64,000 nt of DNA from Neoroseomonas eburnea (GTDB lineage: Bacteria > Pseudomonadota > Alphaproteobacteria > Acetobacterales > Acetobacteraceae): the NCBI RefSeq assembly GCF_018129005.1, contig NZ_JAAEDL010000015.1, positions 1-64,000 on the forward strand, written 5' to 3'. Below are positions 19,986-45,759 of this stretch, piece by piece. The number at the start of each line of letters is the position of its first letter. The stretch's first letter is position 1. Made by a program: the position numbers and the translations under genes. Below the pieces are notes generated by a model, which worked only from the letters and a program-made list of their open reading frames with translations, was not told the origin of the DNA and made no database searches.

Positions 19986-20572
19986 TCAGCTCCTGTTGCG
20001 GATCCGCTCGTGCAGGGCGACGGCGGCGCCGTGCCAGAACTGCGCCTCGGCCGCGGTCAGGGCCTCAAGCTCGGCCCGAGGCCAGTGGTAGTGGCCGCCG
20101 ATGGCGGCGAGGATCAGGTGCCAGTCCTCGGGCCACTCGACAAAAAATGCTCGACCACCCGGGCCGCGAAGCCGACGTCGGCGCCGTCCATCTTGTCGAA
20201 GATGGCGCCGAACTTCGCCTCGTTGATCCGGGCGCAGCGGGCGATCATCACCGTGATCTGCGCATCCTTGCTCGCCGCCGAGATGGCCCGCATGTCGGCG
20301 CCGGTGAGGCGATGCAGGACCAGGCGATCCAGGCTTTCCTCCCGCACCGGCCCGTCCTGGCCGCGGCGGTAGCGCAGCGTGACAGGCACGCTGAGGGGCA
20401 GTTCGATCGTGCCGTCGCGGCGACGCACCGCGTGCTTCGGCAGACCCTTGCCGTCGTCATCCTCATCGATGACGACGACGTCCGGATCGGCCGGCGAGCT
20501 CGCAGCCGCGACCGCGGCGCCCTCCTCCTCGATCTCGACAATCACGTCTTCGGCCGGGGCGATGTCAGCCAT
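19986..20572 (-). CDS. tail assembly chaperone, -1 frameshift product (gp41 fused to extension)
   Basis: At 20147-20141 the coding strand reads T TTT TTG in the zero frame of gp41. A -1 slip continues for 51 further codons (VEWPEDWHLIL, GGHYHWPRAELE) to a stop at 19986, just before the tape measure start, giving a protein of about 195 residues. Nearly all long-tailed phages make a G/GT-type pair by such slippage at this place. The Trp-rich extension matches what the T part usually looks like. Not annotated by simple gene finding. Confidence 0.75.
20114..20572 (-). CDS. tail assembly chaperone, Mu gp41 type
   Basis: A protein of 152 residues: acidic N terminus (EDVIVEIEEEG, VVVIDEDDDG), then RRRDGTIELPLSVPVTL and LVLHRLTGADMRAI, typical of the Mu-type tail assembly protein, ending shortly after the slippery site (FLSSGPRTGT). 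It overlaps the tube gene by eight bases. It keeps the tape measure soluble and recruits tube subunits during assembly. Confidence 0.85.
   Translation of the reverse strand: MADIAPAEDVIVEIEEEGAAVAAASSPADPDVVVIDEDDDGKGLPKHAVRRRDGTIELPLSVPVTLRYRRGQDGPVREESLDRLVLHRLTGADMRAISAASKDAQITVMIARCARINEAKFGAIFDKMDGADVGFAARVVEHFLSSGPRTGT
20141..20147 (-). promoter_or_regulatory. -1 ribosomal frameshift heptamer T TTT TTG
   Basis: The heptamer fits the X XXY YYZ rule in the zero frame of gp41 (codons CAT TTT TTG). The zero frame stops 27 bases downstream, while the -1 frame stays open up to the tape measure gene. Confidence 0.75.
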
Positions 20573-20927
20573 GGAGCAGTTCCTCCGGCTCGCCGGCGGC
20601 GAACGTCAGTTCGATCTTGCCGCCTTCGCCCGAGGTCATCTCCGGCCGGTTGGTCAGGAACGCGTCCGGGAAGACATAGGTCTGCCCGGTATCGCAGCGG
20701 ACGGTGAGCGGCTTCTCGCCGCCGGTCAGGAGATCCTTCAGCTTCTGCCCACGCATCAGGTTGGTCGTGAGCGTGATCTCCGACGCCTCCATCTCCTGCG
20801 CGCGATGCACCTGACGGCCCATGATGACCGGGTTGTTCTTGAGCCCGCCGAGCTTGAGCTTGGAGCCCTTCTCACAGGGGATCGGGGTCTCGCCCCAGCT
20901 CGCGTCGATGATACCGAGGGTCTGCAT
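20565..20927 (-). CDS. tail tube protein (Mu gpM)
   Basis: A protein of 120 residues of the usual size for Mu-type tube subunits: GSKLKLGGLKNNPVIMGRQ, SEITLTTNLMRGQKLKDLL and GEGGKIELTFAAGEPEELLH are family-typical. It polymerises into the inner tail tube. It lies nine bases after the sheath stop. Confidence 0.88.
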   Translation of the reverse strand: MQTLGIIDASWGETPIPCEKGSKLKLGGLKNNPVIMGRQVHRAQEMEASEITLTTNLMRGQKLKDLLTGGEKPLTVRCDTGQTYVFPDAFLTNRPEMTSGEGGKIELTFAAGEPEELLHG

Positions 20928-20936
20928 GGGGCCTCC

Positions 20937-22412
20937 TCACACCTCGAACTGCAGGCTGCCGGCGAGCACCATGAGGTTGCCGACAACGCGCACGAGCTGC
21001 CGCGCATTCATCCGATTCCGATCGTCGGCGTCGCGCAGGAAGCTGCTCTCCGCCACGGTGCGGGTCGCGCTTTCGATCCAGCCCTCGCGCTCGTAGAGCG
21101 TGCACCGGGCGGACCAGGCGGCGTGCATCAGGCGCGGCGTGACGAAGGCCGCTCCGTATTCCGCGACCGGGCTGCCATCGTCCGCGAGCTTCGAACGCGG
21201 GAAGGTCAGACCGACGTAGCTCGCCCAGTCGTAGCGGATGCGAGACATGGTCTTCGGGACCATGATGTCCAGCCAGGCCACGTCATCCACGTCCAGTGCG
21301 GACTTCTGGTAGGTCGTCAGCACCCGATCCAGCCGCACCGTGCCGTCGTTGGAGACCTCGAAGGTCGAGATCCCATCGCGCAGCAGCAGGTCCTGTTCCG
21401 TCATCGTGAAGCGGAGCGCGGGCTCGGGCGGCTGGATCCCCGGAAGCGCCAGGCTGCGCAGCTGGCGCGCGGGGTCGTTGGTCAGATGGAAGGCCGCGAC
21501 GCCAGCCAGGCTCGCCGCCCAGGCCCATGGCGAGGTGGGCGAGGCATTGGCGCCGATGATGGTCAGATGCGGACTGTTGCGTGCCGCGCCCGCTGCCGAG
21601 AGCGCGCCGAAGGTGCCGCGCAGGCCGGCATAGGCATGCGCGTCCATCGCGCCCATCGCCTGATACCGGGTGGCCAGATCGGCGACGAGCGCATTGAGGT
21701 TCGCCGTGTCGGTCCAGGCCACGGCGATGTCGGTGAACCATTCGGCCGCGATGGCGTCGAGCGCATCCTGCAGGTCCGGATCGCCGGTGCCGCCCGACAT
21801 GGCGGTGATGGTCACGGTGAGCCCGGGCGGCGTCGCCTCGCCGGCCAAGCGGTTGAGCCGCAGGTCGATCAGGTTGCCGACCGTGCCCTTCTGCTTCGCG
21901 GTCAGCGTGACGCTGCCGGCAGCGCCGCCGCTGGTCACCGGCAGGCCGGTCTTGGCCGTGATCGCAGCGCGCACCGCCGTGGCAATATCCGCGACCGTGG
22001 CACCGGCGGCGACCGGCACTGCGATGCGCTGGCCGCCGATGTAGAGCGCCAGCGTGCCCGACGCGGTGGGCGATCCGGCCAGCACGACGCTGCCCGCCGC
22101 CGCCACCGCAGCCGCGGCATCGTTCAGCCCCATGACGTAGAGGTCGGTCGTCTGGTTGGCCGCGCGGAACGCCTCCGCCATCTCGGCGCAGACGGACCCG
22201 GCGCCGAACAGCGCCGGCGCCTGGTCGGCGCGTGTGATGCGCTGCGGGAACGCCTCGGCCGCCGTGCCGGTCGCGAGCATCTGCCCGATCAGCAGCACCC
22301 GCGCCGGATAACCGAGCACGCCGAGGTTCTGGTAGCTCGGGCGGATCTCGACATAGGTTCCGGGCTTCCGCCAGTCGTAGGGGATCTCCTCGAAGGAGAT
22401 GGTCTCGGACAT
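20937..22412 (-). CDS. tail sheath protein (Mu gpL)
   Basis: A protein of 491 residues beginning MSETISFEEIPYDWRKPGTY, the usual opening of Mu-type sheath subunits. Later come RVLLIGQMLATGTA, TDLYVMGLND, and a C-terminal domain (YVGLTFPRSKLADDG, MNARQLVRVVGNLMVLAG). It is the contractile sheath, so the virion is a myophage. Confidence 0.92.
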   Translation of the reverse strand: MSETISFEEIPYDWRKPGTYVEIRPSYQNLGVLGYPARVLLIGQMLATGTAAEAFPQRITRADQAPALFGAGSVCAEMAEAFRAANQTTDLYVMGLNDAAAAVAAAGSVVLAGSPTASGTLALYIGGQRIAVPVAAGATVADIATAVRAAITAKTGLPVTSGGAAGSVTLTAKQKGTVGNLIDLRLNRLAGEATPPGLTVTITAMSGGTGDPDLQDALDAIAAEWFTDIAVAWTDTANLNALVADLATRYQAMGAMDAHAYAGLRGTFGALSAAGAARNSPHLTIIGANASPTSPWAWAASLAGVAAFHLTNDPARQLRSLALPGIQPPEPALRFTMTEQDLLLRDGISTFEVSNDGTVRLDRVLTTYQKSALDVDDVAWLDIMVPKTMSRIRYDWASYVGLTFPRSKLADDGSPVAEYGAAFVTPRLMHAAWSARCTLYEREGWIESATRTVAESSFLRDADDRNRMNARQLVRVVGNLMVLAGSLQFEV

Positions 22413-22415
22413 GGA

Positions 22416-22607
22416 TCAGCCCTTCTTCTTCGGGGTTGCGGGCTCGGCCGGGGTGGTCGCCGGCGGCGGGACCAGGTCGCCCGCGGCGATGCGGCGCCGG
22501 ACGAAGGGCGTGCGATCGAGCACCAGGTCCTCGTCGTGCGGCAGCACCTTGCCGTCCGGCAGGCGCACGCGCCGGCCCTCGGCGACGCGCAGGGTGACGC
22601 GCTCCAT
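22416..22607 (-). CDS. small phage protein, Mu gp38/DUF2635 family
   Basis: A protein of 63 residues with RVAEGRRVRLPDGKVLP and LVLDRTPFVRRRIAAGDLV, as in the small protein always found before the sheath gene in Mu-like phages, and a Lys-rich tail. Function unknown. TGATG overlap with the Acb2-like gene. Confidence 0.8.
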   Translation of the reverse strand: MERVTLRVAEGRRVRLPDGKVLPHDEDLVLDRTPFVRRRIAAGDLVPPPATTPAEPATPKKKG

Positions 22608-22852
22608 CACTTGGCCTCCCAGGGGCTGACAGGGCGGGCGACCGCGCGCACGAGACGCATGAAGCCCTCCTCAAAGGCGGTGACTGCGATCGCGACCTGG
22701 CGCTGCGGCTCGCCCGCCGGAGCGGTGTTGCGGACCAGGGCCGCCAGTTCGGCGATGCCTGCCTCCTTCGCCTTGATGTGGTTCATCATGGCGATCTCGC
22801 TCTCGGTGAGCGTGCGGTAGCCCGCGATCTTGCTCGGCTGGTCGTCGGCCAT
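22607..22852 (-). CDS. Acb2/Tad1-like cyclic-nucleotide sponge (anti-CBASS) homolog
   Basis: A protein of 81 residues with GYRTLTESEIAMMNHIKAKEA in the first third and VAIAVTAFEEGFMRLVRAVARP in the last, the two helices of the Acb2/Tad1 hairpin domain. In phage PaMx33, Acb2 binds cGAMP and other cyclic nucleotides and blocks CBASS; Tyr11 and Lys26 there are important, as I recall, and Tyr12 and Lys27 occupy the same spacing here. It sits in the tail block between gp37 and gp38, as in related transposable phages. Binding is predicted, not shown. Confidence 0.78.
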   Translation of the reverse strand: MADDQPSKIAGYRTLTESEIAMMNHIKAKEAGIAELAALVRNTAPAGEPQRQVAIAVTAFEEGFMRLVRAVARPVSPWEAK

Positions 22853-23421
22853 CAGATGCCTGCCTCAATGGTGTCTGCGGGGCCTTCGCTCGGCGGCGGC
22901 TCGAACTGCCACTGCACGGCGAGGCGGAGGAAATCGGGCAGCTCACGCGGATCGGTGAGCGAGAGATTGACCGTGATGCTGAGCGCGGCGATCTCGGCCG
23001 CCTCATCCTTCCAGCCCTCGGCCTGGAGATTGGCGATGCCCACCACCTCGACATGGCCGATGTCCCGCAGCTCGTGCGCATGCAGGCAGAGCGCCGCGAC
23101 CTGGATCATGCCGAGCTGGGCCGGACCCATCGCATCGCCGAGCAGCCGCGCGCGCGGGCTGTGCGCGTTCTTCACCACGACGAAGACCGTCCACTCGGCC
23201 TTGCCCTTGAGGATGCGGCCGCTCGCCGCATCGGGCTTCACGCCGCGGAAGCCGAGACCGACCCACGGTGTGCGCTGCGTCAGGCGCGCCCACATCGCCG
23301 GCGTCAGCCCCGCCGGCACGATCCCGAAGCCGAAGTGAGAGGGCGGAAAGAACGCCTTGAGACGGGCCTCAAGCCCGGCCGCCATGCCGAACAGCGGGCC
23401 GGAGGTGTGCAGGTCCGGCAT
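22852..23421 (-). CDS. Mu gp37-family tail completion protein
   Basis: A protein of 189 residues of the gp37/DUF1834 type, with LRDIGHVEVVGIANLQAEGW and ALSITVNLSLTDPRELPDFL. Likely a tail terminator or head-tail connector. An ATG at 23421 overlaps the gp36 stop by one base; a GTG at 23427 is an alternative start. Confidence 0.78.
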   Translation of the reverse strand: MPDLHTSGPLFGMAAGLEARLKAFFPPSHFGFGIVPAGLTPAMWARLTQRTPWVGLGFRGVKPDAASGRILKGKAEWTVFVVVKNAHSPRARLLGDAMGPAQLGMIQVAALCLHAHELRDIGHVEVVGIANLQAEGWKDEAAEIAALSITVNLSLTDPRELPDFLRLAVQWQFEPPPSEGPADTIEAGI

Positions 23422-23855
23422 CACCACCCCCGCAGCGCATCGCGCGCGAAATCGCGCGGGCGGTCGCTCACCATCGCGCCGGCGCCGGAGCTGCCCGCGG
23501 CCGGCACGGCGCCGGGCAGGACGGCGCTGCCCTCGGCGAGGCGCTCCAGCCAGGCGATGGTGTCCTTGCGCTCCAGGCGCATCTGCTCGGTGGGCTCGCG
23601 CTGCTCACCATGCGCGAGCTGGTAACGCGCCAGCACGGCGCAGGCACGCACGATGGCGGGCGGGATCGGCGCGACCAGCGGCACGGCGTAGCGGCGCGCC
23701 AGATAGCTGTCGATCAGGTCCGTCGCGTCGGTCAGCGCGCGGGTGACCTTCGCCTCCACCACCGGCCCGTCGAGATCGCCCTCGGGCGCGGTGAGGCGGG
23801 TCGCCTCGCTCTCGCCGAAGCTTTCCGTCAGGTCGGCGATGGTGGCGTAGGGCAT
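23421..23855 (-). CDS. Mu gp36-family (DUF1320) head-tail protein
   Basis: A protein of 144 residues with the family opening YATIADLTESFGESEATRL and the helical VTRALTDATDLIDSYLARRYAVPL. It is a head-tail connector-type protein in Mu-like phages. The C-terminal 25 residues are Gly/Ala-rich. Confidence 0.85.
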   Translation of the reverse strand: MPYATIADLTESFGESEATRLTAPEGDLDGPVVEAKVTRALTDATDLIDSYLARRYAVPLVAPIPPAIVRACAVLARYQLAHGEQREPTEQMRLERKDTIAWLERLAEGSAVLPGAVPAAGSSGAGAMVSDRPRDFARDALRGW

Positions 23856-23858
23856 GGA

Positions 23859-24407
23859 TCAGGCGCCCCTGCGCCGGCCGGAGGTGCGCGCCGCCGCGGC
23901 CGGTGCCGCGGAGCCATCCCCCGACGACGCCGCAACGGGCGGCTGCGGCGGCGCGGTCTGGGTGTCCCCATCCGTACTGGCGGGCGCGGGGGTGGAAGCC
24001 GCGCCCGCCGCCGGTCCATCGGTGGAAGCGCCGGCGCCGCCGGAGCCCCCTTCGTTGCGGGGTGCATCGGTGGAGGGAGCGGAGGCAGCGCCGATCGCCG
24101 GATCCCCGTGATCGGCCGTGGCAGCCGGCAGGCTCCCGCCCCCCGCTGGTGCGACCGCTTGCGCGCCGGGCTCGAGCTTCCCGGGCAGCGCGGGCAACGG
24201 GACCGGCCCGCCGGGGGAGGCTGTGCCGCCCCCGTCGCCCTCGGATCCTGGTTCGATCGGAACGAGCCGCAGCATCGGCTCGGCAGCCAACACGGCGAGC
24301 TGCTCGGCCGTGAAGGCGCCCGCCGCATATTCCGCCCGCGCCGGGTGCGCGATGCCGGCCCGGCGGAAACCAGGCCGGCGGCAGAGGATGACGAGCGCGG
24401 GGCTCAC
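23859..24407 (-). CDS. Mu gp35/HI1506-like protein with long Pro/Ala tail
   Basis: A protein of 182 residues. The first 45 residues (LCRRPGFRRAGIAHPARAEY, FTAEQLAVLAAEPMLRLVPI) match the FluMu N-terminal domain of HI1506/gp35. The remaining 130 residues are low-complexity Gly/Ala/Pro/Ser. The start is a GTG overlapping the major head stop (GTGA). The tail's role is unknown. Confidence 0.75.
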   Translation of the reverse strand: MSPALVILCRRPGFRRAGIAHPARAEYAAGAFTAEQLAVLAAEPMLRLVPIEPGSEGDGGGTASPGGPVPLPALPGKLEPGAQAVAPAGGGSLPAATADHGDPAIGAASAPSTDAPRNEGGSGGAGASTDGPAAGAASTPAPASTDGDTQTAPPQPPVAASSGDGSAAPAAAARTSGRRRGA

Positions 24408-25297
24408 GCCAGCCACGGCACCACCAGCAGCTCGGCCGTGCCGCGCCACACGTTGGTGGCGCCGGCGGCATCGCGCTCGGCGTTGAGGATCTCGAGACCG
24501 GCCGCCTCCAGGGAGGGCGGCACGACCAGTAGGCGCGGCGTGAGGCCGAGCGGCTTCCCGTAGTCGCCCTTCATGCCCTGCATGGCCGCGCGCGCCGCAC
24601 CATAGGCCGCGGCATCGAGGGTCTGCTTCGACCCGTAGGCCATCTGCCAGAACCCATAGCCGACATTGCAGCGACCATCGACGCCGTAGCGGTACTCGTT
24701 GCGGTCGAACACGACCTCGTCGGTCGCCGCGTCCATGCGGCGAAACTCGAAGGAGCGGCGGTTCTGGAAGATCAGCGGCTTCAGCGCGCGCGAGACGTCG
24801 AGCAGGAACCACGGCGTTCCGGCACCGCCACCGGAGTTGCTGACGGACTGCGGCACTCCGCCCGCATCGAGCACCGGATGATCGGTGTCGAAGAAGTTCT
24901 GGCCGTCGTAGCAGAGCTGCGAGAAACCGCTCTTGAGCAGCGGCCAGATCAGCTCGTCCGGGAAGGTCGCGGTCTCGCGACCCATATCGGTGAAGAGCGG
25001 CGTGTAGATGCCGAGATTGTCGTCGTCGAGGTCATCCCGATCGACGCCGACGGTCATCTCCCACCGCTTGTTCTTGATGGCGTAGGCGTGCGCGGCCAGG
25101 CCATGCACGACACGGTCGCCGATCCATTCCCGGATGCGCGGGAACTTGCCCAGCCAGCCGTATTCATTCTGGCTGGTGCTGCTCGGCACCGTGGTGGCCA
25201 CGCGCTCGAACTGCCGTGGCGCACCAGCGAAGCCGCCCTGATAGGCGGCCGAGAAGCCGGTGTAGAGGGTGCGCAGATTGGCGCTGTTCAGGATCAC
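24404..25297 (-). CDS. major head protein (Mu gpT)
   Basis: A protein of 297 residues of normal gpT length: LRTLYTGFSAAYQGGF, GWLGKFPRIREWIGDRVV, MTVGVDRDDLDDDNLGIYTP and the C-terminal RLLVVPPSLEAAGLEILNA are the expected HK97-fold landmarks of this family. The start is GTG 25297 with GAGGAG nine bases upstream; longer in-frame extensions are shadow. Confidence 0.92.
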   Translation of the reverse strand: MILNSANLRTLYTGFSAAYQGGFAGAPRQFERVATTVPSSTSQNEYGWLGKFPRIREWIGDRVVHGLAAHAYAIKNKRWEMTVGVDRDDLDDDNLGIYTPLFTDMGRETATFPDELIWPLLKSGFSQLCYDGQNFFDTDHPVLDAGGVPQSVSNSGGGAGTPWFLLDVSRALKPLIFQNRRSFEFRRMDAATDEVVFDRNEYRYGVDGRCNVGYGFWQMAYGSKQTLDAAAYGAARAAMQGMKGDYGKPLGLTPRLLVVPPSLEAAGLEILNAERDAAGATNVWRGTAELLVVPWLA

Positions 25298-25310
25298 GGG
25301 CGGGCGCTCC

Positions 25311-25706
25311 TCAGGTCTCGACCCAGACGCCCTGGGCGTCCACGCCGCGGCAGATGCCGGCGGCGCTGCGGGTGTTGGTGCCGTTGGTCTTCGCGACCGT
25401 CTCGTCGTCGACGATGTAGACGGTCGCGCCATAATCGGCGTTCGTGATGGCGTCGCCGGCCGCGCTGTTCTTCCAGCGGAAGCAGCCGCGACGGCCGCGG
25501 ATCACGCCGTCATAGCCGGCATCCTCCGTGCTGTTGTCGGCGCGGCCGAGCGCCTTCAGCGTCGTGGCGACGGCGCCCTTCACCAGCTCCCCCGAGGCGT
25601 CCAGCGCGACGAGCGCGCCACGGAAGATCTGCTGGCCGGCCGCGGGCGCGAAGGCAAAATCCTTCGCGCCACGCTCCGGCGTGTTGCGGTCGGCGGCGAG
25701 GGCCAT
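25311..25706 (-). CDS. probable capsid cement/decoration protein
   Basis: A protein of 131 residues with QQIFRGALVALDASGELVKG and AGDAITNADYGATVYIVDD, the small beta-barrel pattern of phage decoration proteins found between protease/scaffold and major head genes. No enzymatic motif. It begins right after the protease stop. Confidence 0.65.
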   Translation of the reverse strand: MALAADRNTPERGAKDFAFAPAAGQQIFRGALVALDASGELVKGAVATTLKALGRADNSTEDAGYDGVIRGRRGCFRWKNSAAGDAITNADYGATVYIVDDETVAKTNGTNTRSAAGICRGVDAQGVWVET

Positions 25707-26276
25707 TTACGCGACCTCCTGGTTCGCCGCCTTCGCGGCCTTCTTGAACGCCTCCGGGTCGACGCCCATCAGCGCGACGATGCGCGCCTCCTCACCGACC
25801 AGGCCGGCCGCGTCCGCAGCGGCGCCGGGCTTGCGCTCGCCGATGCCGCCGGCGTGCAGCGACGGCAGCGCCGCCAGCTCCTTCTCGACCTGCGCGGCGT
25901 CAACGCAATGGCGGGCGATGTAGTCCTCGCGCAGCGCCTTGATCGGCTTGCCGGCGCGGATGGCCTCGTCGACCACGGCGGTCGCGCGGGCCTTCTTCGT
26001 CTCGCCTTCCAGCGTGGTGACCTGCGCCTGCAGGGAGACGACAGTTTCGCGCAGCTTCGCCGGATCGTCCCCCGCGCCGCGGGCCTGCAGCGCGGTGACG
26101 ATGGCATCGGCGGCCGGCGTGCCGGCGGTCTCGATGCCCGCCGCCTTGCCGATCGCCGCGAGCTGCTGCGCATGGGTCGCGACGGCAGTCCGGCTCGTCT
26201 CGGCCGCGGCGAGGATCGCCGCCTCGTCCGCGTCCTCGGCCAGGCCGAGCGCGGCACGCAGCTTCTTCAGGTCCAC
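25707..26276 (-). CDS. nested scaffold protein (Mu gpZ-like), internal in-frame start
   Basis: Inside the protease gene a GTG at 26276 is preceded at six bases by AGGAG (26283-26287) and starts just before LKKLRAALGLAEDADEAAIL, where the helical scaffold region begins. The product would have 189 residues. In Mu, protein Z is made in this way from within gene I. Confidence 0.6.
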   Translation of the reverse strand: MDLKKLRAALGLAEDADEAAILAAAETSRTAVATHAQQLAAIGKAAGIETAGTPAADAIVTALQARGAGDDPAKLRETVVSLQAQVTTLEGETKKARATAVVDEAIRAGKPIKALREDYIARHCVDAAQVEKELAALPSLHAGGIGERKPGAAADAAGLVGEEARIVALMGVDPEAFKKAAKAANQEVA

Positions 26277-26756
26277 GGTGGGCTCCTGTGCGGTGTGCAG
26301 GGTTGCGAGGGATAGGTTGGGGTTGTTCGTCAGCGCGGCGCGCATCACCTGCAGCACCTCGCCGGTCTTCTCGTTGCAAACGAAGCTCGGGGAGATGCCG
26401 CGATAGGCCTTCTCCTCCACGAGCGTGCGCCCCGTCGGCGTCCATTCGACGCGGCCCCAGAGCGCGCCGTCGCGCGCCTGCAGATCGACGATCCAGCCGC
26501 GCGCCGGCGCGGGCGCACCCGCCTTCAGGCCGGTGTCGATCTGGTGATTCTCGTCGATCGGAAGCCGCCCGCCAGCGGCCTGTAGCGACTTCGTCGCCAG
26601 CGCCGCCACGTCCTTCATGTGATAGGGGCCGCGGCCATCGAGCCCCGAGAAGGTGCCGGCGGGCAGCAGCTGGATCCATTCGGGCACGGGCGCAGCACCG
26701 CCGGAGGCGGAGGCCTCGGCGACGGGCAGCAGGGAATGGATGGCGGCGACGTGCAT
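25707..26756 (-). CDS. phage protease I with C-terminal scaffold (Mu gpI/Z)
   Basis: A protein of 349 residues. The protease part (GRLPIDENHQIDTG, ARGWIVDLQARDGALWGRVEW, RGISPSFVCNEKTGEV) has the His and Ser regions expected for the Mu protease. The second half is helical and charged, the scaffold. Its start lies 32 bases after late-promoter-like copy B. It cleaves scaffold during head maturation. Confidence 0.88.
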   Translation of the reverse strand: MHVAAIHSLLPVAEASASGGAAPVPEWIQLLPAGTFSGLDGRGPYHMKDVAALATKSLQAAGGRLPIDENHQIDTGLKAGAPAPARGWIVDLQARDGALWGRVEWTPTGRTLVEEKAYRGISPSFVCNEKTGEVLQVMRAALTNNPNLSLATLHTAQEPTVDLKKLRAALGLAEDADEAAILAAAETSRTAVATHAQQLAAIGKAAGIETAGTPAADAIVTALQARGAGDDPAKLRETVVSLQAQVTTLEGETKKARATAVVDEAIRAGKPIKALREDYIARHCVDAAQVEKELAALPSLHAGGIGERKPGAAADAAGLVGEEARIVALMGVDPEAFKKAAKAANQEVA

Positions 26757-26788
26757 CGGCGACAGACTGGCCGCACGGCACCGCGCCG

Positions 26789-26810
26789 GTTAATGCCCGC
26801 GGGTGCGGGC
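26789..26810 (-). promoter_or_regulatory. late-promoter-like repeat, copy B (before protease I)
   Basis: GTTAATGCCCGCGGG then TGCGGGC on the plus strand: one mismatch to copies A and C over 22 bases. It lies 32 bases before the protease start, where Mu has the late promoter for gene I. Confidence 0.6.
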
Positions 26811-26913
26811 CGAAACGCCCCTCGGGCACGCGCGACGAGGATGGCCGTACAGGGGCCTGCGGCCTCCTCCGCCCCCATCGGGCGTCGGGATGCCGAAAAG
26901 CCGCCTGTCCCCC

Positions 26914-26940
26914 CTCTTAGACGCTCTTAATCGCTCTTAA
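26914..26940. repeat. central iteron triplet (CTCTTAA-type repeats at 10-bp steps)
   Basis: CTCTTAG (26914), CTCTTAA (26924) and CTCTTAA (26934) repeat at exactly ten-base steps in the gap between gpG and the protease gene. The complement resembles the CTAAGAG/CAGAG clusters at both prophage ends. It may be a binding array for a phage or host protein. Confidence 0.45.
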
Positions 26941-26964
26941 TTTTGGAGGTTGGATCCGCAGGGG

Positions 26965-27477
26965 CTACGGGCGGCGCATGAGGAAGAATTCCACCGCGTC
27001 GAGGATGTCCTCCTGGTCCCGAGAGGACAAGCCCAGATAGGGTCGCGCGGGGATCGTCACTTCCTCGGCGCGACCGAACACCTGGCCGTCCGGCGTGCGG
27101 AAGACCAGGAAGGGGCTCCGCTTCGCGCGGATGACCGCGCCGAACTGGTGGACGGCCGCGTAGATCTTGTTGCTGCCCACGGCGAGCTCGCCGCCGGCGA
27201 CGTCGAAGGTGATGCTGCCCTGCAGGCCGCCGCGCATGCCGCTCTCGCGCAGGATGCCTGGCCCCTTCTTCAGCGCGGCCCAGGCGGTGGTCAGCGGCTC
27301 CCAGGGCGCGCCGTCCGGATCGACCTCCTCGTCGAAGCGGTCCTGGGTATTGCTGACCAGGCGCGCGCCGACCGCGCGCAGGATGGGCGCGGGATCTCGG
27401 CCGGTCGCGATCCAGCCGCCGATCAGCGCGCGGGCCTGCTCGGCTTCGACGGTGACGGTGATGTGGGCGCCGCTCAT
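26965..27477 (-). CDS. virion morphogenesis protein (Mu gpG)
   Basis: A protein of 170 residues with TQDRFDEEVDPDGAPWEPLT, KIYAAVHQFGAVIRAK and the C-terminal ARPYLGLSSRDQEDILDAV, the usual pattern of the gpG family (tail completion/head-tail joining). Four-base overlap with the small upstream gene. Confidence 0.9.
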   Translation of the reverse strand: MSGAHITVTVEAEQARALIGGWIATGRDPAPILRAVGARLVSNTQDRFDEEVDPDGAPWEPLTTAWAALKKGPGILRESGMRGGLQGSITFDVAGGELAVGSNKIYAAVHQFGAVIRAKRSPFLVFRTPDGQVFGRAEEVTIPARPYLGLSSRDQEDILDAVEFFLMRRP

Positions 27478-27677
27478 TCGCGGGGCGCGGCCTCGGTCTC
27501 CGGGTCGTCCACCTCGAAGCCCAGCGACAGATAGAGCTCGCGCTGCGCATCCGCCTTCGCGAGCAGCCGGCGAAGCATTTCGACGGGCTGGTTCCGCAGG
27601 CTCTCCAGTGGCTCTCGGAACACCACCGCGTAACGGCGGCGGATCGCCTCAGCCTCCGCTTCCCTGGTGTCCGACAT
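27474..27677 (-). CDS. small helical phage protein of unknown function
   Basis: A protein of 67 residues, strongly charged and helical (REAEAEAIRRRYAVVF, VEMLRRLLAKADAQREL). It overlaps the minor head gene by 29 bases and gpG by four. No family recognised. Confidence 0.6.
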   Translation of the reverse strand: MSDTREAEAEAIRRRYAVVFREPLESLRNQPVEMLRRLLAKADAQRELYLSLGFEVDDPETEAAPRE

Positions 27678-29121
27678 CGGTGATCTCCAGCACAATACGC
27701 CGGCTCGTCCGGCTCAGCACACGATACCGCGTCCCTGGCGCGAGCAGAACCTCGTACTGGGCAGGCCTGCCGACCGGCCACGGATGAACATAGGCGATGC
27801 CGCGCGTCCCCGGGGCAATGCGGATCTCGATCGTCCGGCCGCCATGCCGCCGCGCGAAGTCGCGCGCGATGTCGGGATCCAGCGAGGTCGAGGTGAAGGC
27901 GCGGAAATGGCTCTCTGTGCCGACACGGCCCAGGGCCTTGACCTCGGCGGCGCTGGCGCCGCGCTGCACCGTGATGGAGCGTGGTGCGGCCGCCCGAGAA
28001 AGGGCGCCTCGCAGGGCGGCGATCGCCTGGCGCAGACCGGGCGAGCCCGCCTCGGCACCGACCACGATGTCGTTCAGGGCCTGGCCAACGCGGCGATAAA
28101 GGCGCAGCGCTTCGAGTTCCTCCGCCGACAGCGATGCCCCCCAGGCCGCATAGCCCTCCCGCAGCGCTTCGTCGGCCGCGCGGACCGCAGGGGTCGCCGG
28201 GTCGCGCCGGACCACCGGCCTGGCGGCGAGCGGCCGTGCCGGCGGCAGCGGTATGTCCGGCCGGCCGGGCTCGACCGGCCGCACCGGCACGACGTCACGG
28301 TCGATCGCGGGTGCCGGCCGCGTCGCGGGCCGGCGGACAGGCGCGGAGGAACCGCCCGGCACGGGTGGCGGCCAGTTCCCAGGCGGCGGCCGGGGCACGG
28401 CGTCGCCGGGGATCTGCGGCCGGCCGCGCCACGCCTCGCCCGGGTTGTAGTCGAAGCCCGGGTCGATCCCCACGGGCACCTGGTGCTCCTCGCCGGTGCG
28501 GGGGTTGGTCCAGGGGCGGGTCTCGATCCGCGGTGATGCATCGGGACCGGATTTTCCCTGGCGCGCCAGGTCGCGCGCCGACAGGATCCGCACGCGGCAG
28601 CCGCAGCGCCAGCCATTGGGCGGATAGTGTGTACGCCAGAAGGCATCGTCCGCGCGAAGCGTCAGGCCGTTCCATGCCAGGTGCTGCTGCCGGGGGTGTC
28701 GCGCCCCCGAATGCACGTACTGCCAGTACGGGTAGAGAGCGAGCGTGTCCGGCTGCGTCTGCTGCGCATAGCGGCCCGCGGCATAGGCAGTTGAGAGGTT
28801 CGTCTCGTAGATGATCCGCGATCGCCAGGCTGGCGCGCCGTTATGGACCCAGCCGTGGCGCGCCACGATGTCATCGAAGGCCAGGCGGAAATCCCGCAGC
28901 GTGGTGCCCTGCTCGAGCGCGCGGGAGATCTCGGCGCGGAAGTCGTTCAGCAGGGCGTCGGCCGCCGCGCCGGCGACCATGAAACTGCGGGAATGCGCTG
29001 CCTGCCAGACGTCGGTCCAGTGCTGCGTCGGCTCGTTCACCTTCTGCCGGAAGAAGGCGATGGCTTCCTGGAACGGCAGCCCGATGCCGGACGCCGTGCT
29101 GCGCGCGGCCGTACCGGACAT
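27649..29121 (-). CDS. minor head protein (Mu gp30/SPP1 gp7 type) fused to an ADP-ribosyltransferase domain
   Basis: A protein of 490 residues. Residues 1-190 are the head-morphogenesis domain (RIIYETNLSTAYAAGRYAQQ, NGWRCGCRVRI). A Pro-rich linker follows to about 310. Residues 330-485 look like an R-S-E-type ADP-ribosyltransferase: Arg387 in ITVQRG, FTSTS at 409-413, and QYE at 455-457 giving a QxE turn. Minor head proteins of this family enter the virion, so the enzyme could be delivered with the DNA, as with T4 Alt. Target and activity are unknown. Confidence 0.85.
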   Translation of the reverse strand: MSGTAARSTASGIGLPFQEAIAFFRQKVNEPTQHWTDVWQAAHSRSFMVAGAAADALLNDFRAEISRALEQGTTLRDFRLAFDDIVARHGWVHNGAPAWRSRIIYETNLSTAYAAGRYAQQTQPDTLALYPYWQYVHSGARHPRQQHLAWNGLTLRADDAFWRTHYPPNGWRCGCRVRILSARDLARQGKSGPDASPRIETRPWTNPRTGEEHQVPVGIDPGFDYNPGEAWRGRPQIPGDAVPRPPPGNWPPPVPGGSSAPVRRPATRPAPAIDRDVVPVRPVEPGRPDIPLPPARPLAARPVVRRDPATPAVRAADEALREGYAAWGASLSAEELEALRLYRRVGQALNDIVVGAEAGSPGLRQAIAALRGALSRAAAPRSITVQRGASAAEVKALGRVGTESHFRAFTSTSLDPDIARDFARRHGGRTIEIRIAPGTRGIAYVHPWPVGRPAQYEVLLAPGTRYRVLSRTSRRIVLEITDVGHQGSGG

Positions 29122-41780: not shown

Positions 41781-42149
41781 TCAGCGGCCCTCCTGGTCCA
41801 GCAGGACGCGGATCAACTGCCATGCCTCGACCTGCCAGGCGGGGTAGAACAGGGCCATGGTCTCGGGGGTCTCGCGCCCGTTGCGCGACCAATGCATGTC
41901 GATGACCCGCATCGCCGTGATCGCCGGGTCGTGCATGGCGCAGCGGCGGGCGATCTCGGCCGCTGTCGTCTCGTTCTGGGCCTCGGCAATGGCGCCGCCG
42001 AGGGTGAGGGCGTTCCCCGATCTCCTCGGCCGCACGCAGATCAGCGCGCCCTCGGCGTAGATGCCGCCATCGTCGATCTCGGCAGGCGTCACGGGGCCGC
42101 GGATTGTGGCGCCGCGACCGTCGAGCGGATTGTCTGGCTGCTCGGGCAT
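41781..42149 (-). CDS. phage protein of unknown function downstream of transposition gene B
   Basis: A protein of 122 residues with GATIRGPVTPAEIDDGGIYA, RSGNALTLGGAIAEAQNETT and YPAWQVEAWQLIRVLLDQEG. TGATG overlap with gene B. No family recognised. Confidence 0.6.
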   Translation of the reverse strand: MPEQPDNPLDGRGATIRGPVTPAEIDDGGIYAEGALICVRPRRSGNALTLGGAIAEAQNETTAAEIARRCAMHDPAITAMRVIDMHWSRNGRETPETMALFYPAWQVEAWQLIRVLLDQEGR

Positions 42150-43135
42150 CACGCCGCCTCCGCCGTCAGGGTGGCGCCGCTGCTCAGCCGTTCCCACGCC
42201 ATGCGGATGTGGTTCTCGCCCATCGCCTCGGCGCCCTCGGCGCCCGCCAGCATGTGCGCCATCCGCAGGGCCTTCGTCAGGTTGCGCAGCGCCCCCGGCC
42301 TCTTTGCGATGGTCTGCAGCAGGGTGCGTTCCTCCTTCCCGGCGACACCCCACGCGTCCAGCAGCTTCTCGACATCGCCCTTCAGCGCGCGTGGCCGCTG
42401 CAGCCGCATGCCGACGCGGGAGTAGAGCTGGGCGAACTGTGCGGCGCGCGTGCCGCCTTCGAGGCGCGCATAGACGCTCTCATTGCCGAGCAGCGCGATG
42501 CCGATGCCGGCCTGGTCGTGGAACATCCGTAGCTGATCCAGCGTCTGGCTCGTCAGGTGCTGCGCCTCGTCGATCAGGATGAGACCCTGGCTGCCCGTCA
42601 TGCGCTTGCCGAGCGAGCGGCTGAGCTTCTGCGAGGAGAGGCCGCGCTCCGTCACGCCAATGGCCTCCGCCAGCTCGTCCAGCAGCGCGCGCGGGGATGA
42701 CATCGTCGGTTCCGCGGTGATCATCCAGACATTGGCGTTCCGCGCGGCATACCAGCGGGCCGAGGAGGTCTTCCCGACCCCCGGCGCGCCGGTGACGACG
42801 ACCATCTCCGGCATGTACTGCGCGTGTTCCAGCGTCGCGAGGATCGCATCCGCCGTTGGTGTGGCGACGAAGGCCGGCGCGCGCGGCGCCAGCGCGCGGG
42901 TACGGTCCGCGGCTTCGAGCCCGTTGAGCCAATGCATCACCTGTTCGGCGATCGACGCGTTGCGGCCTTTGTAGGTGCCGCCCATCCAGGAACTGAAGGT
43001 GCCGTAGGGGATGCCGACCTGGCGGGACACGTCGGTCATCGCCATCTTGCGCTCGGCCATGGTGGCGCGGATGCGCACGCGGACGGCCTCGATCTCCTCG
43101 GGGCTCATCTGTGGTTCGAATGCGTCGCTGGGCAT
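42149..43135 (-). CDS. transposition protein B (MuB-like AAA+ ATPase)
   Basis: A protein of 328 residues. An N-terminal Cro-like helix-turn-helix (MAMTDVSRQVGIPYGTFSSW) precedes the AAA+ part with Walker A GAPGVGKT at 116-123 and Walker B LILIDEAQ with Asp189 and Glu190. The C-terminal helices resemble MuB. It selects target DNA, activates the transposase and gives target immunity. Confidence 0.93.
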   Translation of the reverse strand: MPSDAFEPQMSPEEIEAVRVRIRATMAERKMAMTDVSRQVGIPYGTFSSWMGGTYKGRNASIAEQVMHWLNGLEAADRTRALAPRAPAFVATPTADAILATLEHAQYMPEMVVVTGAPGVGKTSSARWYAARNANVWMITAEPTMSSPRALLDELAEAIGVTERGLSSQKLSRSLGKRMTGSQGLILIDEAQHLTSQTLDQLRMFHDQAGIGIALLGNESVYARLEGGTRAAQFAQLYSRVGMRLQRPRALKGDVEKLLDAWGVAGKEERTLLQTIAKRPGALRNLTKALRMAHMLAGAEGAEAMGENHIRMAWERLSSGATLTAEAA

Positions 43136-43181: not shown

Positions 43182-45173
43182 TCAGTCCTCGGTGTCGTCT
43201 TCGTCCGGCACCAGCCGGAGCTGCGGGGCGGTTCCAGCGCCCCGCAGCGCTCGGCGGGCGGCGACGAACAGGCGCTCGGATCGTTCGGCCGAGCTTTCTT
43301 CCTCCTGGTCGATGACGGGCTTCAGCGCGGCCGTGCCGCGGAAGAGCGGGCGCACCACGCGGGGCGCCGGCGTTTCCGGGTCCGGGCGGCGCAGATCGGC
43401 GAGGTCGCGCGCGAGCTGTTCGGCGCTGATGCGCGCCTCGGCATCGGCGAGCAGCCTCAGCCCCTTGCGGCGCATCTTGTTGGCCCGCGCGGTGCGGCGC
43501 GCGGCGTCGACATCGCCGAAGCCCACATCGGCGATGCAGTCGGCGGTGACGAAGAATTCGCCGGACGCGAGGAAGATGTGGATCGGCGCGTGAAGCCGTT
43601 CGGGATCGAAGCGCACCGTCACGGGCCGGCCGCGCAGCTCTACCAGGCGCGCATCGTGATAGCGGTTGCCCAGGAGGTGGACCGTCGCGTCGCGGCGGAC
43701 CTTTACCTCCTCGGCGGCGAGCAGGAAGACGCGGCGCTGCGCGTCCGTCGGGCGAACGATCAGGTGCGCCGAGGCCTCGTAGCTCTCGGCGAACGTGTCG
43801 TCGAAGGACCGCCCGCGGCAGTTCCCGGCGGTGCGGCCGGGTCGGGCGTTGTGCTCGGCGATGCCGGCTTCCAGCACCTGCAGGAAGGTCGCCAGCGGAA
43901 CCGCCTTCGACCCGTAGTCATGCGGCTTGGTCGACGTGCTGTTGCCGGTCCACGCACCGACGAAGGCGGGGTGGCGCGCGATGTCGCGCGCGACGTCGCC
44001 GAATGCGCGCTCGATCGGCTTGGAGCGGCCGCTGTAGGGCTTGGCCCAATGCACCTCGACGCCGAGGGTCGGGAAGATGCCGAGCGGCTCCTCGGCGCGG
44101 ACCTTGAAGCGGAAGCGGCGCTTGAGGCCGCCCGACATCGTCTTGTTCGCCGCAGCCAGCGTGTTGTCGATCGTGCATTTGCGGGGAATGCCGTACTTCT
44201 CGACGACGTCCCCGAAGGCGAGGCGGAACGTGTCGCCGGTCTCGTCGGGTCCGACGCGGTAGCCGAGGAATTTCCCGCTGTAGAGGTCCTGGAAGAAGAC
44301 CACCATCGGGCGCGCCTTCTCGCCGTCCGGCCACAACACGAAATTGTCGAAGCGATGGCCATCGGCGTTCAGCCATTCCATCGCGTGGAGCGCGGAACGA
44401 TCGCGCCGTTGCGTCGGGAACATGGCGTCCGCCGCTTCGGGGCCGTGGCGATGCCAGGTCTTCACGACCTCGGGCAACGCATCGATGCGGCGACGCATGG
44501 TGCGCTGCGATGGCAGTTTCCAGCCGCGCTGCGCGGCGACCTGCTGCAGGTCGCGCCAGCACTGCTCGAACGTCGGCCTGTTGGAGAGCAGGTAGCGCGA
44601 GCGCATCCACTCCCAGGCGTCGTCGTCGCAGGCCGCGCGCGGGCCGCCGGCACCGGCATATTGAGGGACCAGGCGCGCCAGCCAGTTCGCACGCGGCACG
44701 CCGTCCACCAGCTTCGCCCATTCGTACAGCTGCGCGCGAGAGACACCGTGCGAGGCCGCGACCTCCATCATCGCGAGGGTTCGCGGCCGGCCCTGGTTGA
44801 TGAGCGTCGCAACCGCGTCGAGTGCACCGACGCGCGAGCGCGCGCGGGCCTTGTGCTTCTCGGGCTGGCGTTCGTAGGCCTCCCAGGCGGCCTCGTCGGA
44901 CAGGCGCTGGAGGGCGGCTTCCTTCTCCGCCGGCTTCGCGGTGCTCCCGCTGCGAGCGAGGATCTTCGCCTGGACGTAGCTGGGCAGGACCGCGAGGGCG
45001 TACTCGACGCCGCCGCCGCGCCCCTGGCGGCGGCGCCAGAGGCGGCCCTCCGCATCGGGGTGGTTCCAATCCTCGCGCTCGGCCAGCATGGCCAGGCCGC
45101 GGCGGGTGTCGGGCATGCCGGGCAGCGACATTGCGGCGAGCTCGGTGAGGGTGAGCCACATGTCGGGCGTCAC
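43182..45173 (-). CDS. transposase A (MuA-like, DDE)
   Basis: A protein of 663 residues, the same length as MuA. Order: N-terminal winged helix (LTLTELAAMSLPGMPDTRRG), end-binding helix-turn-helix domains (about 120-240), catalytic RNase H fold with Asp271 (NADGHRF), Asp336 (TIDNTLAA) and Glu388 (SKPIERAF), then a Mu-type beta barrel and C terminus that contacts B. The GTG at 45173 overlaps the upstream stop (GTGA). It cuts and joins the phage ends. Confidence 0.94.
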   Translation of the reverse strand: MTPDMWLTLTELAAMSLPGMPDTRRGLAMLAEREDWNHPDAEGRLWRRRQGRGGGVEYALAVLPSYVQAKILARSGSTAKPAEKEAALQRLSDEAAWEAYERQPEKHKARARSRVGALDAVATLINQGRPRTLAMMEVAASHGVSRAQLYEWAKLVDGVPRANWLARLVPQYAGAGGPRAACDDDAWEWMRSRYLLSNRPTFEQCWRDLQQVAAQRGWKLPSQRTMRRRIDALPEVVKTWHRHGPEAADAMFPTQRRDRSALHAMEWLNADGHRFDNFVLWPDGEKARPMVVFFQDLYSGKFLGYRVGPDETGDTFRLAFGDVVEKYGIPRKCTIDNTLAAANKTMSGGLKRRFRFKVRAEEPLGIFPTLGVEVHWAKPYSGRSKPIERAFGDVARDIARHPAFVGAWTGNSTSTKPHDYGSKAVPLATFLQVLEAGIAEHNARPGRTAGNCRGRSFDDTFAESYEASAHLIVRPTDAQRRVFLLAAEEVKVRRDATVHLLGNRYHDARLVELRGRPVTVRFDPERLHAPIHIFLASGEFFVTADCIADVGFGDVDAARRTARANKMRRKGLRLLADAEARISAEQLARDLADLRRPDPETPAPRVVRPLFRGTAALKPVIDQEEESSAERSERLFVAARRALRGAGTAPQLRLVPDEDDTED

Positions 45174-45628
45174 GCGCCACCTGCCTTGCGCGCTTCGCGC
45201 ATAAGCTGCTCGCGCGTGCGGCGCAGCTCGTCTTCCTTTTCGCGGATGGCGGCGACCTCGATCAGCGGCAGGTGGCGGCGCTCGATCACGGCCCAGCCCA
45301 TGGGCTCGGCCAGCAGCTGCAGGAGGCGGCGGTCCCCGGTCGCGTGCATCAGCGCGATCAGGCGGGTGACCGGGATGGCGTGCTCGCGCCGCGCCTCGGA
45401 GGCATAGGCGTCGAGCATCGGCTTCGAGACGCGTTCCCCGAGATAGGCGGACATCCGCTCGGCGACCTCGTCGCGAGGCTGGCCGCAGTCGCGGAGCGTG
45501 GCGGCGACGGCCCGGGCGATGGAGGCGGCGACGGTCGCGGCGCGCACATGCGCCGGCTCGAAGGCGACCACCGTCGCGGGCGGCTGCCATTCCAGCAGGT
45601 CGGGCTGTGCGGGGTGCCGCGGCGCCAT
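45170..45628 (-). CDS. conserved early phage protein before the transposase
   Basis: A protein of 152 residues: LLEWQPPATVVAFEPAHVRA, GQPRDEVAERMSAYLGERVS, RREHAIPVTRLIALMHATGD and a charged C-terminal helix. Similar genes precede the transposase in B3-like and alphaproteobacterial Mu-like phages, so a role in transposition or its control is possible. Confidence 0.65.
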   Translation of the reverse strand: MAPRHPAQPDLLEWQPPATVVAFEPAHVRAATVAASIARAVAATLRDCGQPRDEVAERMSAYLGERVSKPMLDAYASEARREHAIPVTRLIALMHATGDRRLLQLLAEPMGWAVIERRHLPLIEVAAIREKEDELRRTREQLMREARKAGGA

Positions 45629-45630
45629 GG

Positions 45631-45759
45631 TCAGGAGCAGGCCTTCCAGACGACGGCAGCGATGAAGGCGGCGACAATGGTCAGGGCGGTCGCGCCGAGC
45701 AGGCGGATGAACCAGTCCCCGCGGCAGCTGCTGTTGGGGCGGGACGCGCTCACGGTCAC
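45631..45759 (-). CDS. very small membrane protein
   Basis: A protein of 42 residues with one membrane segment (LLGATALTIVAAFIAAVVW). GTG start overlapping the preceding stop by four bases. Function unknown. Confidence 0.5.
   Translation of the reverse strand: MTVSASRPNSSCRGDWFIRLLGATALTIVAAFIAAVVWKACS

What the first reader, a model, noticed from the sequence alone, without database searches (positions are those of the whole stretch)
22607..22852. Acb2-like cyclic-nucleotide sponge embedded in the tail operon
Seen: a protein of 81 residues with both helices of the Acb2/Tad1 hairpin domain and Tyr12/Lys27 at the spacing of the Tyr11/Lys26 pair described for PaMx33 Acb2 (from memory). Known: Acb2 sequesters signals of CBASS and related defences. 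Inference: this alphaproteobacterial phage carries an anti-CBASS gene, expressed with structural genes or earlier.
Basis: partly seen in the sequence, partly recalled or inferred. Interest (0 to 1): 0.75.

Follow-up and report, generated by a model that had tools for sequence, protein, structure and literature searches.

The report
Phage sponge against bacterial alarm signals
A Mu-like virus integrated in a bacterium carries, tucked between two tail genes, a small gene of a known family (Acb2) whose members soak up the alarm molecules bacteria use to stop infection; it looks like a new member of a known kind of counter-defence.

Summary
Window 22607-22852, minus strand, encodes 81 aa that match Pfam Acb2/Tad1 hairpin (E 2.7e-17, 63 bits, cut-off 27), Acb2 sequences in the PDB and, as an AlphaFold2 model (pLDDT 89.7), Acb2 structures as the first eight Foldseek hits. 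Tyr12 and Lys27 line up with Tyr11 and Lys26 of PaMx33 Acb2 and are nearly invariant in 191 aligned family members. The gene overlaps its neighbours in the structural operon of a transposable Mu-like myophage prophage, between gp37-like and DUF2635 (gp38-like) genes. Of 43 distinct loci, window included, 41 have nothing there, so it is accessory. Acb2 of phage JBD67, tested against CBASS in published work, also sits among structural genes, and acb2 occupies at least three joints of this block. Other species of the host genus carry CBASS cyclase-effector loci; this host shows only a cut-off cyclase. Best reading: a cyclic-oligonucleotide sponge made with virion genes. Binding, hexamer and function are untested. 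New member of a known kind.

The parts
22607..22852 (-). acb2-like gene, 81 aa; predicted helices at residues 17-43 and 48-72; near-invariant Y12, N24, K27, R51, T58, R69, P74
22852..23427 (-). gp37-like gene just upstream (Mu gp37 is the tail terminator); its stop overlaps the acb2 start
   Evidence: phrog_490 E 1.1e-14 (PHROG labels it 'portal protein'); no Pfam hit; named gp37-like from its place between gp36- and gp38-like genes and its homologues there in other loci; overlap read; Mu gp37 role from passages of PMC11915804
22416..22610 (-). DUF2635 (Mu gp38-like) gene just downstream; its start overlaps the acb2 stop
   Evidence: PF10948 E 6e-07, phrog_208
20937..22412 (-). tail sheath
   Evidence: phrog_165 E 1.8e-163
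20565..20927 (-). tail tube
   Evidence: phrog_185 E 2.6e-13
23421..23855 (-). head-tail adaptor (Mu gp36-like)
   Evidence: phrog_195 E 1.1e-38
24404..25432 (-). major head protein
   Evidence: phrog_371 E 3.3e-125
42149..43135 (-). MuB-like transposition protein
   Evidence: phrog_296 E 1.4e-84
43182..45677 (-). MuA-like transposase
   Evidence: phrog_310 E 6.9e-148

Best explanation
The gene encodes a phage Acb2: a small helical-hairpin protein that should assemble into a hexamer and bind, without cutting, the cyclic di- and trinucleotides made by CBASS cyclases, so that the CBASS effector is not switched on. It is a single-gene accessory insert in the structural operon of a transposable Mu-like phage. 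It would be translated with the connector and tail proteins during lytic growth and not in the quiet prophage. Shown here: family, predicted fold, conserved site residues, operon position, empty joints in relatives, and CBASS loci in other species of the host genus. Inferred: hexamer, ligands, timing and protection.
For: PF24729 63.1 bits against cut-off 27; PDB sequences of Acb2 at E 2.3e-07 with the single protein and 2.7e-32 with a 13-row family profile, T4 Vs.4 at 5.7e-12. AF2 model pLDDT 89.7, pTM 0.72; the first 8 of 128 Foldseek matches are Acb2 chains (8h2j, 8h2x, 7uq2), E 6e-04 to 5.8e-03, the ninth, unrelated, at E 0.94. Y12 in 179 of 182, K27 in 185 of 188, R51 in 185 of 191, T58 in 176 of 191, R69 in 186 of 191 aligned sequences that have a residue there (window included). 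By my hand count on the alignment, T4 Y8 and T68 fall on Y12 and T58; Y8A disrupts dinucleotide binding and T68M lowers affinity in T4 Acb2 (passages of PMC12657218, and PMC12657230). Precedent: JBD67 acb2 lies at 22985-23311 between head-side genes and the head-tail adaptor gene; supplying Acb2 partly rescues JBD67 delta-acb2 (Huiting et al. 2023 as cited in passages of PMC13083879). Presence/absence: 43 distinct loci, 2 with acb2 between gp37 and gp38 and 41 with 8-75 nt there. CBASS loci with cyclase and effector in two other species of the genus, G705 (two loci) and G692.
Against: No binding or protection data for this protein. The host shows only the first part of a CD-NTase (118 of 334 profile positions) and no SAVED match, so no working CBASS was seen in this strain. 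The short N-terminal helix described for Acb2 is not in the model (residues 1-16 coil; first ten residues at pLDDT 62). Foldseek rmsd is 3.1-4.4 A for the eight Acb2 matches. The gene is rare in the host's relatives: 4 of 299 family genomes over the cut-off, own genome included. Even in JBD67 the published rescue by Acb2 was only partial.
Confidence: 0.83

Rival explanations
1. A virion or assembly protein: the hairpin has been recruited as a connector or chaperone piece, which would explain its place between tail genes.
For: Position inside the connector/tail block with overlapping genes; head-tail adaptor is the commonest family just downstream of acb2 (8 of 114 neighbours scanned).
Against: Absent at this joint in 41 of 43 distinct loci (two of the 41, L026 and L019, have an acb2 elsewhere). 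At the JBD67 joint B3 and JBD18, with near-identical capsid proteins, have no gene. The same gene family sits at different joints. Nucleotide-site residues are kept.
Confidence: 0.04
2. A sponge tuned to another signal: gcADPR of Thoeris, cyclic oligoadenylates shared with type III CRISPR, or a housekeeping dinucleotide, rather than CBASS signals.
For: Pfam groups Acb2 with Tad1 in one hairpin family, Tad1 chains are weak profile hits (E 0.06-0.07), and a review describes sponges that take several signals (PMC12043709 passages). The host shows no working CBASS.
Against: No N-terminal beta-sheet domain of Tad1 (81 aa, two helices only); the Tyr/Lys site is that of Acb2. Thoeris, Pycsar, type III CRISPR and Panoptes were not searched for in the host.
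Confidence: 0.1
3. A decayed or drifting relic of an acb2 gene with no present function.
For: The host's own cyclase gene is cut off, so selection in this strain may be absent.
Against: Intact ORF, site residues kept, codon differences 9/14/33 against the nearest relative.
Confidence: 0.03

Closest known systems
Acb2 of Pseudomonas phages PaMx33 (ORF24) and PaP2 (p26; PDB 8H2J)
   Same: Same Pfam family and predicted hairpin; Tyr11, Lys26, Arg67 and Thr74 of PaMx33 in the same columns as Y12, K27, R51 and T58
   Different: 17 residues shorter between the conserved Tyr and Pro, and another C-terminus. In PaMx33 the gene closes a block with primase, polymerase and MazG-like genes and converges on structural genes, rather than lying inside them
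acb2 (gp34) of Beetrevirus JBD67
   Same: Beetrevirus, recalled as transposable B3-like phages; acb2 inside the structural gene block; accessory, with no gene at that joint in B3 and JBD18
   Different: Sits two genes earlier, before the head-tail adaptor; no sheath gene in the stretch seen; Pseudomonas host
L009, metagenome virus contig IMGVR_UViG_3300002461_001161
   Same: Same joint; acb2 65% identical, sheath 73%
   Different: 120 aa with the start chosen here, about 32 extra residues at the C-terminus
T4 Acb2 (Vs.4; PDB 7UQ2)
   Same: Fold and the tyrosine and threonine of the nucleotide site
   Different: The arginine at R51 is not kept in T4
Tad1 (Thoeris anti-defence 1)
   Same: Shares the Arg...Thr stretch of the second helix
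   Different: Has an N-terminal beta-sheet domain (PMC12043709 passage), missing here

Membership tests
Acb2 | Acb2/Tad1 hairpin sequence family above the curated cut-off | tested here: met
   PF24729 63.1 bits, cut-off 27
Acb2 | Two long antiparallel helices matching solved Acb2 | tested here: met
   Helices 17-43 and 48-72, pLDDT 89.7; first 8 Foldseek hits are Acb2, TM 0.66-0.71 by query length
Acb2 | Short N-terminal helix before the hairpin (PMC12043709 passage) | tested here: inconclusive
   Residues 1-16 modelled as coil, first block of ten at pLDDT 62; may form only in the hexamer
Acb2 | Cyclic dinucleotide site residues (Tyr11/Lys26 in PaMx33; Tyr8 in T4) | tested here: met
   Y12 and K27 in the same columns; role of Tyr from passages of PMC12657218 and PMC12657230, role of Lys26 recalled only
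Acb2 | Homo-hexamer with three dinucleotide and two trinucleotide sites | not testable with these tools
   Only monomer prediction was offered
Acb2 | Binds cyclic oligonucleotides without cutting them | not testable with these tools
   Needs purified protein
Acb2 | Protects phage against CBASS | not testable with these tools
   Needs a plating assay; other species of the host genus have CBASS loci
Tad1 | N-terminal beta-sheet domain plus hairpin | tested here: not met
   81 aa, no strand in the model; Tad1 chains only at E 0.06-0.07, over profile positions 38-71

The most novel reading that the evidence does not exclude
In transposable phages acb2 behaves as a roving single-gene cargo of the connector/tail block: it has entered at least three different gene joints (capsid side/adaptor, tail terminator/DUF2635, sheath/tube), in the cases read closely with spacers of a few tens of bases or less. 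The late timing would be selected because CBASS is roused by capsid or other late products, so the sponge arrives together with the trigger.
Probability: 0.35. Interest if true: 0.5.

Novelty: new member of a known kind. Interest (0 to 1): 0.33.

Why it matters
It extends a tested anti-CBASS family to a Mu-like myophage of an alphaproteobacterium, where the searches made here listed no described Acb2 (open-access library, listing capped at 20 of 1,089), and gives natural with/without pairs at one gene joint. It also shows that small counter-defence genes can hide in virion operons, and that many phage records call them 'NAD/FAD-utilizing enzyme'.

Tried and rejected
Rejected: a virion-part role (no gene at the joint in most relatives); Tad1 membership; chance similarity. 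The tree of 115 acb2 proteins joins window and L009 (100/99) but does not place the pair, L277 or L251; a single origin of the gp37/gp38 placement is not ruled out by well supported branches. Its 'other' label only means that my profiles saw no transposable-phage neighbour. An internal promoter was looked for and not found. The first megablast of 20000-26000 against phages gave no match.

Rows dropped: the structure alignment A2 used the window plus 73 of 126 non-redundant viral proteins. The neighbour scan used 114 of 120 downstream ORFs; six were left out, one wrongly picked (L009, its sheath) and five doubtful ORFs; the 115 upstream ORFs were not scanned. L277 and L251 are outside the 43-locus count because my gp37 profile missed their gp37; Pfam found it.

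Full report
What is there. Window 22607-22852 on the minus strand is an 81-aa ORF. It scores 63.1 bits to Pfam PF24729, Acb2/Tad1 hairpin, cut-off 27, and matches PHROG families without a stated function. A single-sequence search of the PDB finds Acb2 (p26, 8h2j) at E 2.3e-07; with a 13-row family profile Acb2 is at 2.7e-32 and T4 Vs.4 at 5.7e-12, with Tad1 chains at 0.06-0.07 over profile positions 38-71 only. tblastn finds 236 phage records at E <= 1, all below 60% identity.

Residues. In the 13-row alignment Y12, R13, N24, R51, T58, R69 and P74 are invariant; in the 74-row one Y12, K27 and P74. Among 191 aligned sequences, window included, Y12 is kept in 179 of 182, K27 in 185 of 188, N24 in 183 of 188, R51 in 185 of 191, T58 in 176 of 191 and R69 in 186 of 191 that have a residue there. 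These were fetched with Acb2 queries, so the sample leans to true Acb2. T4 Y8, whose change to alanine disrupts dinucleotide binding (passages of PMC12657218 and PMC12657230), and T68, where T68M is said to lower affinity, fall on Y12 and T58 in the alignment (my hand count, allowing one extra residue in the PDB chain). T4 F82, also named, falls on Ala72 here, as it does on Ala in PaMx33. That Lys26 contacts dinucleotides and Arg67 (= R51) trinucleotides is recalled; two look-ups of the primary papers found nothing held.

Fold. AlphaFold2 with a 74-row alignment gives pLDDT 89.7, pTM 0.72 and two helices, 17-43 and 48-72. Of 128 Foldseek matches in the PDB the first eight are Acb2 chains (E 6e-04 to 5.8e-03, one of them below 0.001; TM 0.66-0.71 by query length; rmsd 3.1-4.4 A); the ninth, unrelated, is at E 0.94. 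The N-terminal helix reported for Acb2 is not modelled.

Setting. The window holds a transposable Mu-like myophage prophage: MuA- and MuB-like genes, terminase, portal, gpF-like and tape-measure genes, protease, capsid, adaptor, sheath and tube. The gene lies between the gp37-like and DUF2635 genes with overlapping stop and start codons on both sides. In Mu gp36 is the adaptor and gp37 the tail terminator (passages of PMC11915804). No sigma-70-like site was seen on this strand in 20000-27000.

Accessory nature. Of 43 distinct loci in which gp37 and gp38 genes were both recognised, acb2 lies between them in two (window and L009) and the other 41 have 8-75 nt there (individual loci), including Caldovatus sediminis with a 71% identical sheath (L012). 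Two of the 41, L026 and L019, carry an acb2 elsewhere in the stretch; most stretches are too short to exclude that for the others. A further contig, L277, outside that count, has gp37 (PF08873), acb2 (PF24729), DUF2635 and sheath in that order; the tree does not set its acb2 beside the window's. In L251 acb2 sits between sheath and tube. In L026, L092, L133, L134, L136 and L140 it lies between a capsid-type gene and the head-tail adaptor, as in JBD67; SS2019XII and Lsp-JY19 show it in a like place after the capsid gene, where the following genes are annotated only as hypothetical or structural. In JBD67 the order is major head gp32, gp33, acb2 gp34, head-tail adaptor gp35. Of 26 records with a capsid protein at least 95% identical, 22 are among the 60 listed acb2 records (226 in all); the other four are B3 and JBD18, two records each, where capsid, one hypothetical gene and adaptor follow directly. 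A scan of 114 downstream neighbours of acb2 in virus contigs shows diverse settings; the head-tail adaptor family is the commonest, 8 of 114. So structural-operon placement is one recurrent setting, not a rule.

Host side. Pfam SMODS finds a CD-NTase over the cut-off in 3 of 35 genomes of the genus, the window's own included. The own copy (contig C48) is cut off: 172 aa covering 118 of 334 positions of the best PADLOC cyclase and 1-116 of 164 of SMODS, beside ArdC-like and weakly ParB-like genes; no effector was recognised among the few neighbouring ORFs scanned and no SAVED match at E <= 0.001 in the genome. G705 carries two loci with cyclase and effector (cyclase, TRIP13 and SAVED endonuclease; cyclase, E1-E2 and SAVED-2TM) and G692 a cyclase with a 2TM effector. 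Phages of this genus may thus meet CBASS of several types. PF24729 itself is rare: 4 of 299 family genomes and 6 of 385 class genomes over the cut-off, own genome included each time.

Mechanism. During lytic growth the structural operon is translated; the protein forms a hexamer and holds CBASS di- and trinucleotides, so effectors stay off until assembly is done. Passages seen say that Acb2 is active during induction rather than lysogenic maintenance (PMC12043709) and that phages with acb2 deletion that escape CBASS carry a capsid change (PMC10419184), which would fit a late trigger; the link to operon position is my inference. In JBD67 delta-acb2 supplied Acb2 rescued titres only partly (PMC13083879 passages).

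Novelty. Searches with Acb2, Mu-like, alphaproteobacteria, JBD67, prophage and capsid terms listed no paper on acb2 in Mu-like phages of alphaproteobacteria. The library is open-access only, the listings were capped (25 of 331, 20 of 1,089, 10 of 153), and the one paper was seen as a listing only. The find is a new member of a known family in a new phage group, at a joint shared here by L009 and L277; the mechanism is known.

Noticed in passing
window 27649-29121 (-): The gpF-like minor head protein carries a C-terminal ADP-ribosyltransferase domain (PF03496 E 3.3e-11, residues 322-473; phrog_3895), perhaps an enzyme carried with the virion.
   Followed up: partly
L319 9365-9883 (-) (own genome, contig C48): Cut-off CD-NTase beside an ArdC-like anti-restriction gene and a weakly ParB-like gene: perhaps remains of a CBASS locus on a plasmid- or island-like stretch.
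   Followed up: partly
L251 5001-5237: acb2 between sheath and tube genes of another Mu-like phage.
   Followed up: partly
L019 3-104: The cut start of this relative's stretch holds the end of an acb2-like gene, about 8 kb upstream of its sheath.
   Followed up: no
phage records H1-H7, H60, H64-H68 and others: acb2 homologues are annotated 'NAD/FAD-utilizing enzyme' in many deposited phages, which hides them.
   Followed up: no
   Followed up: no
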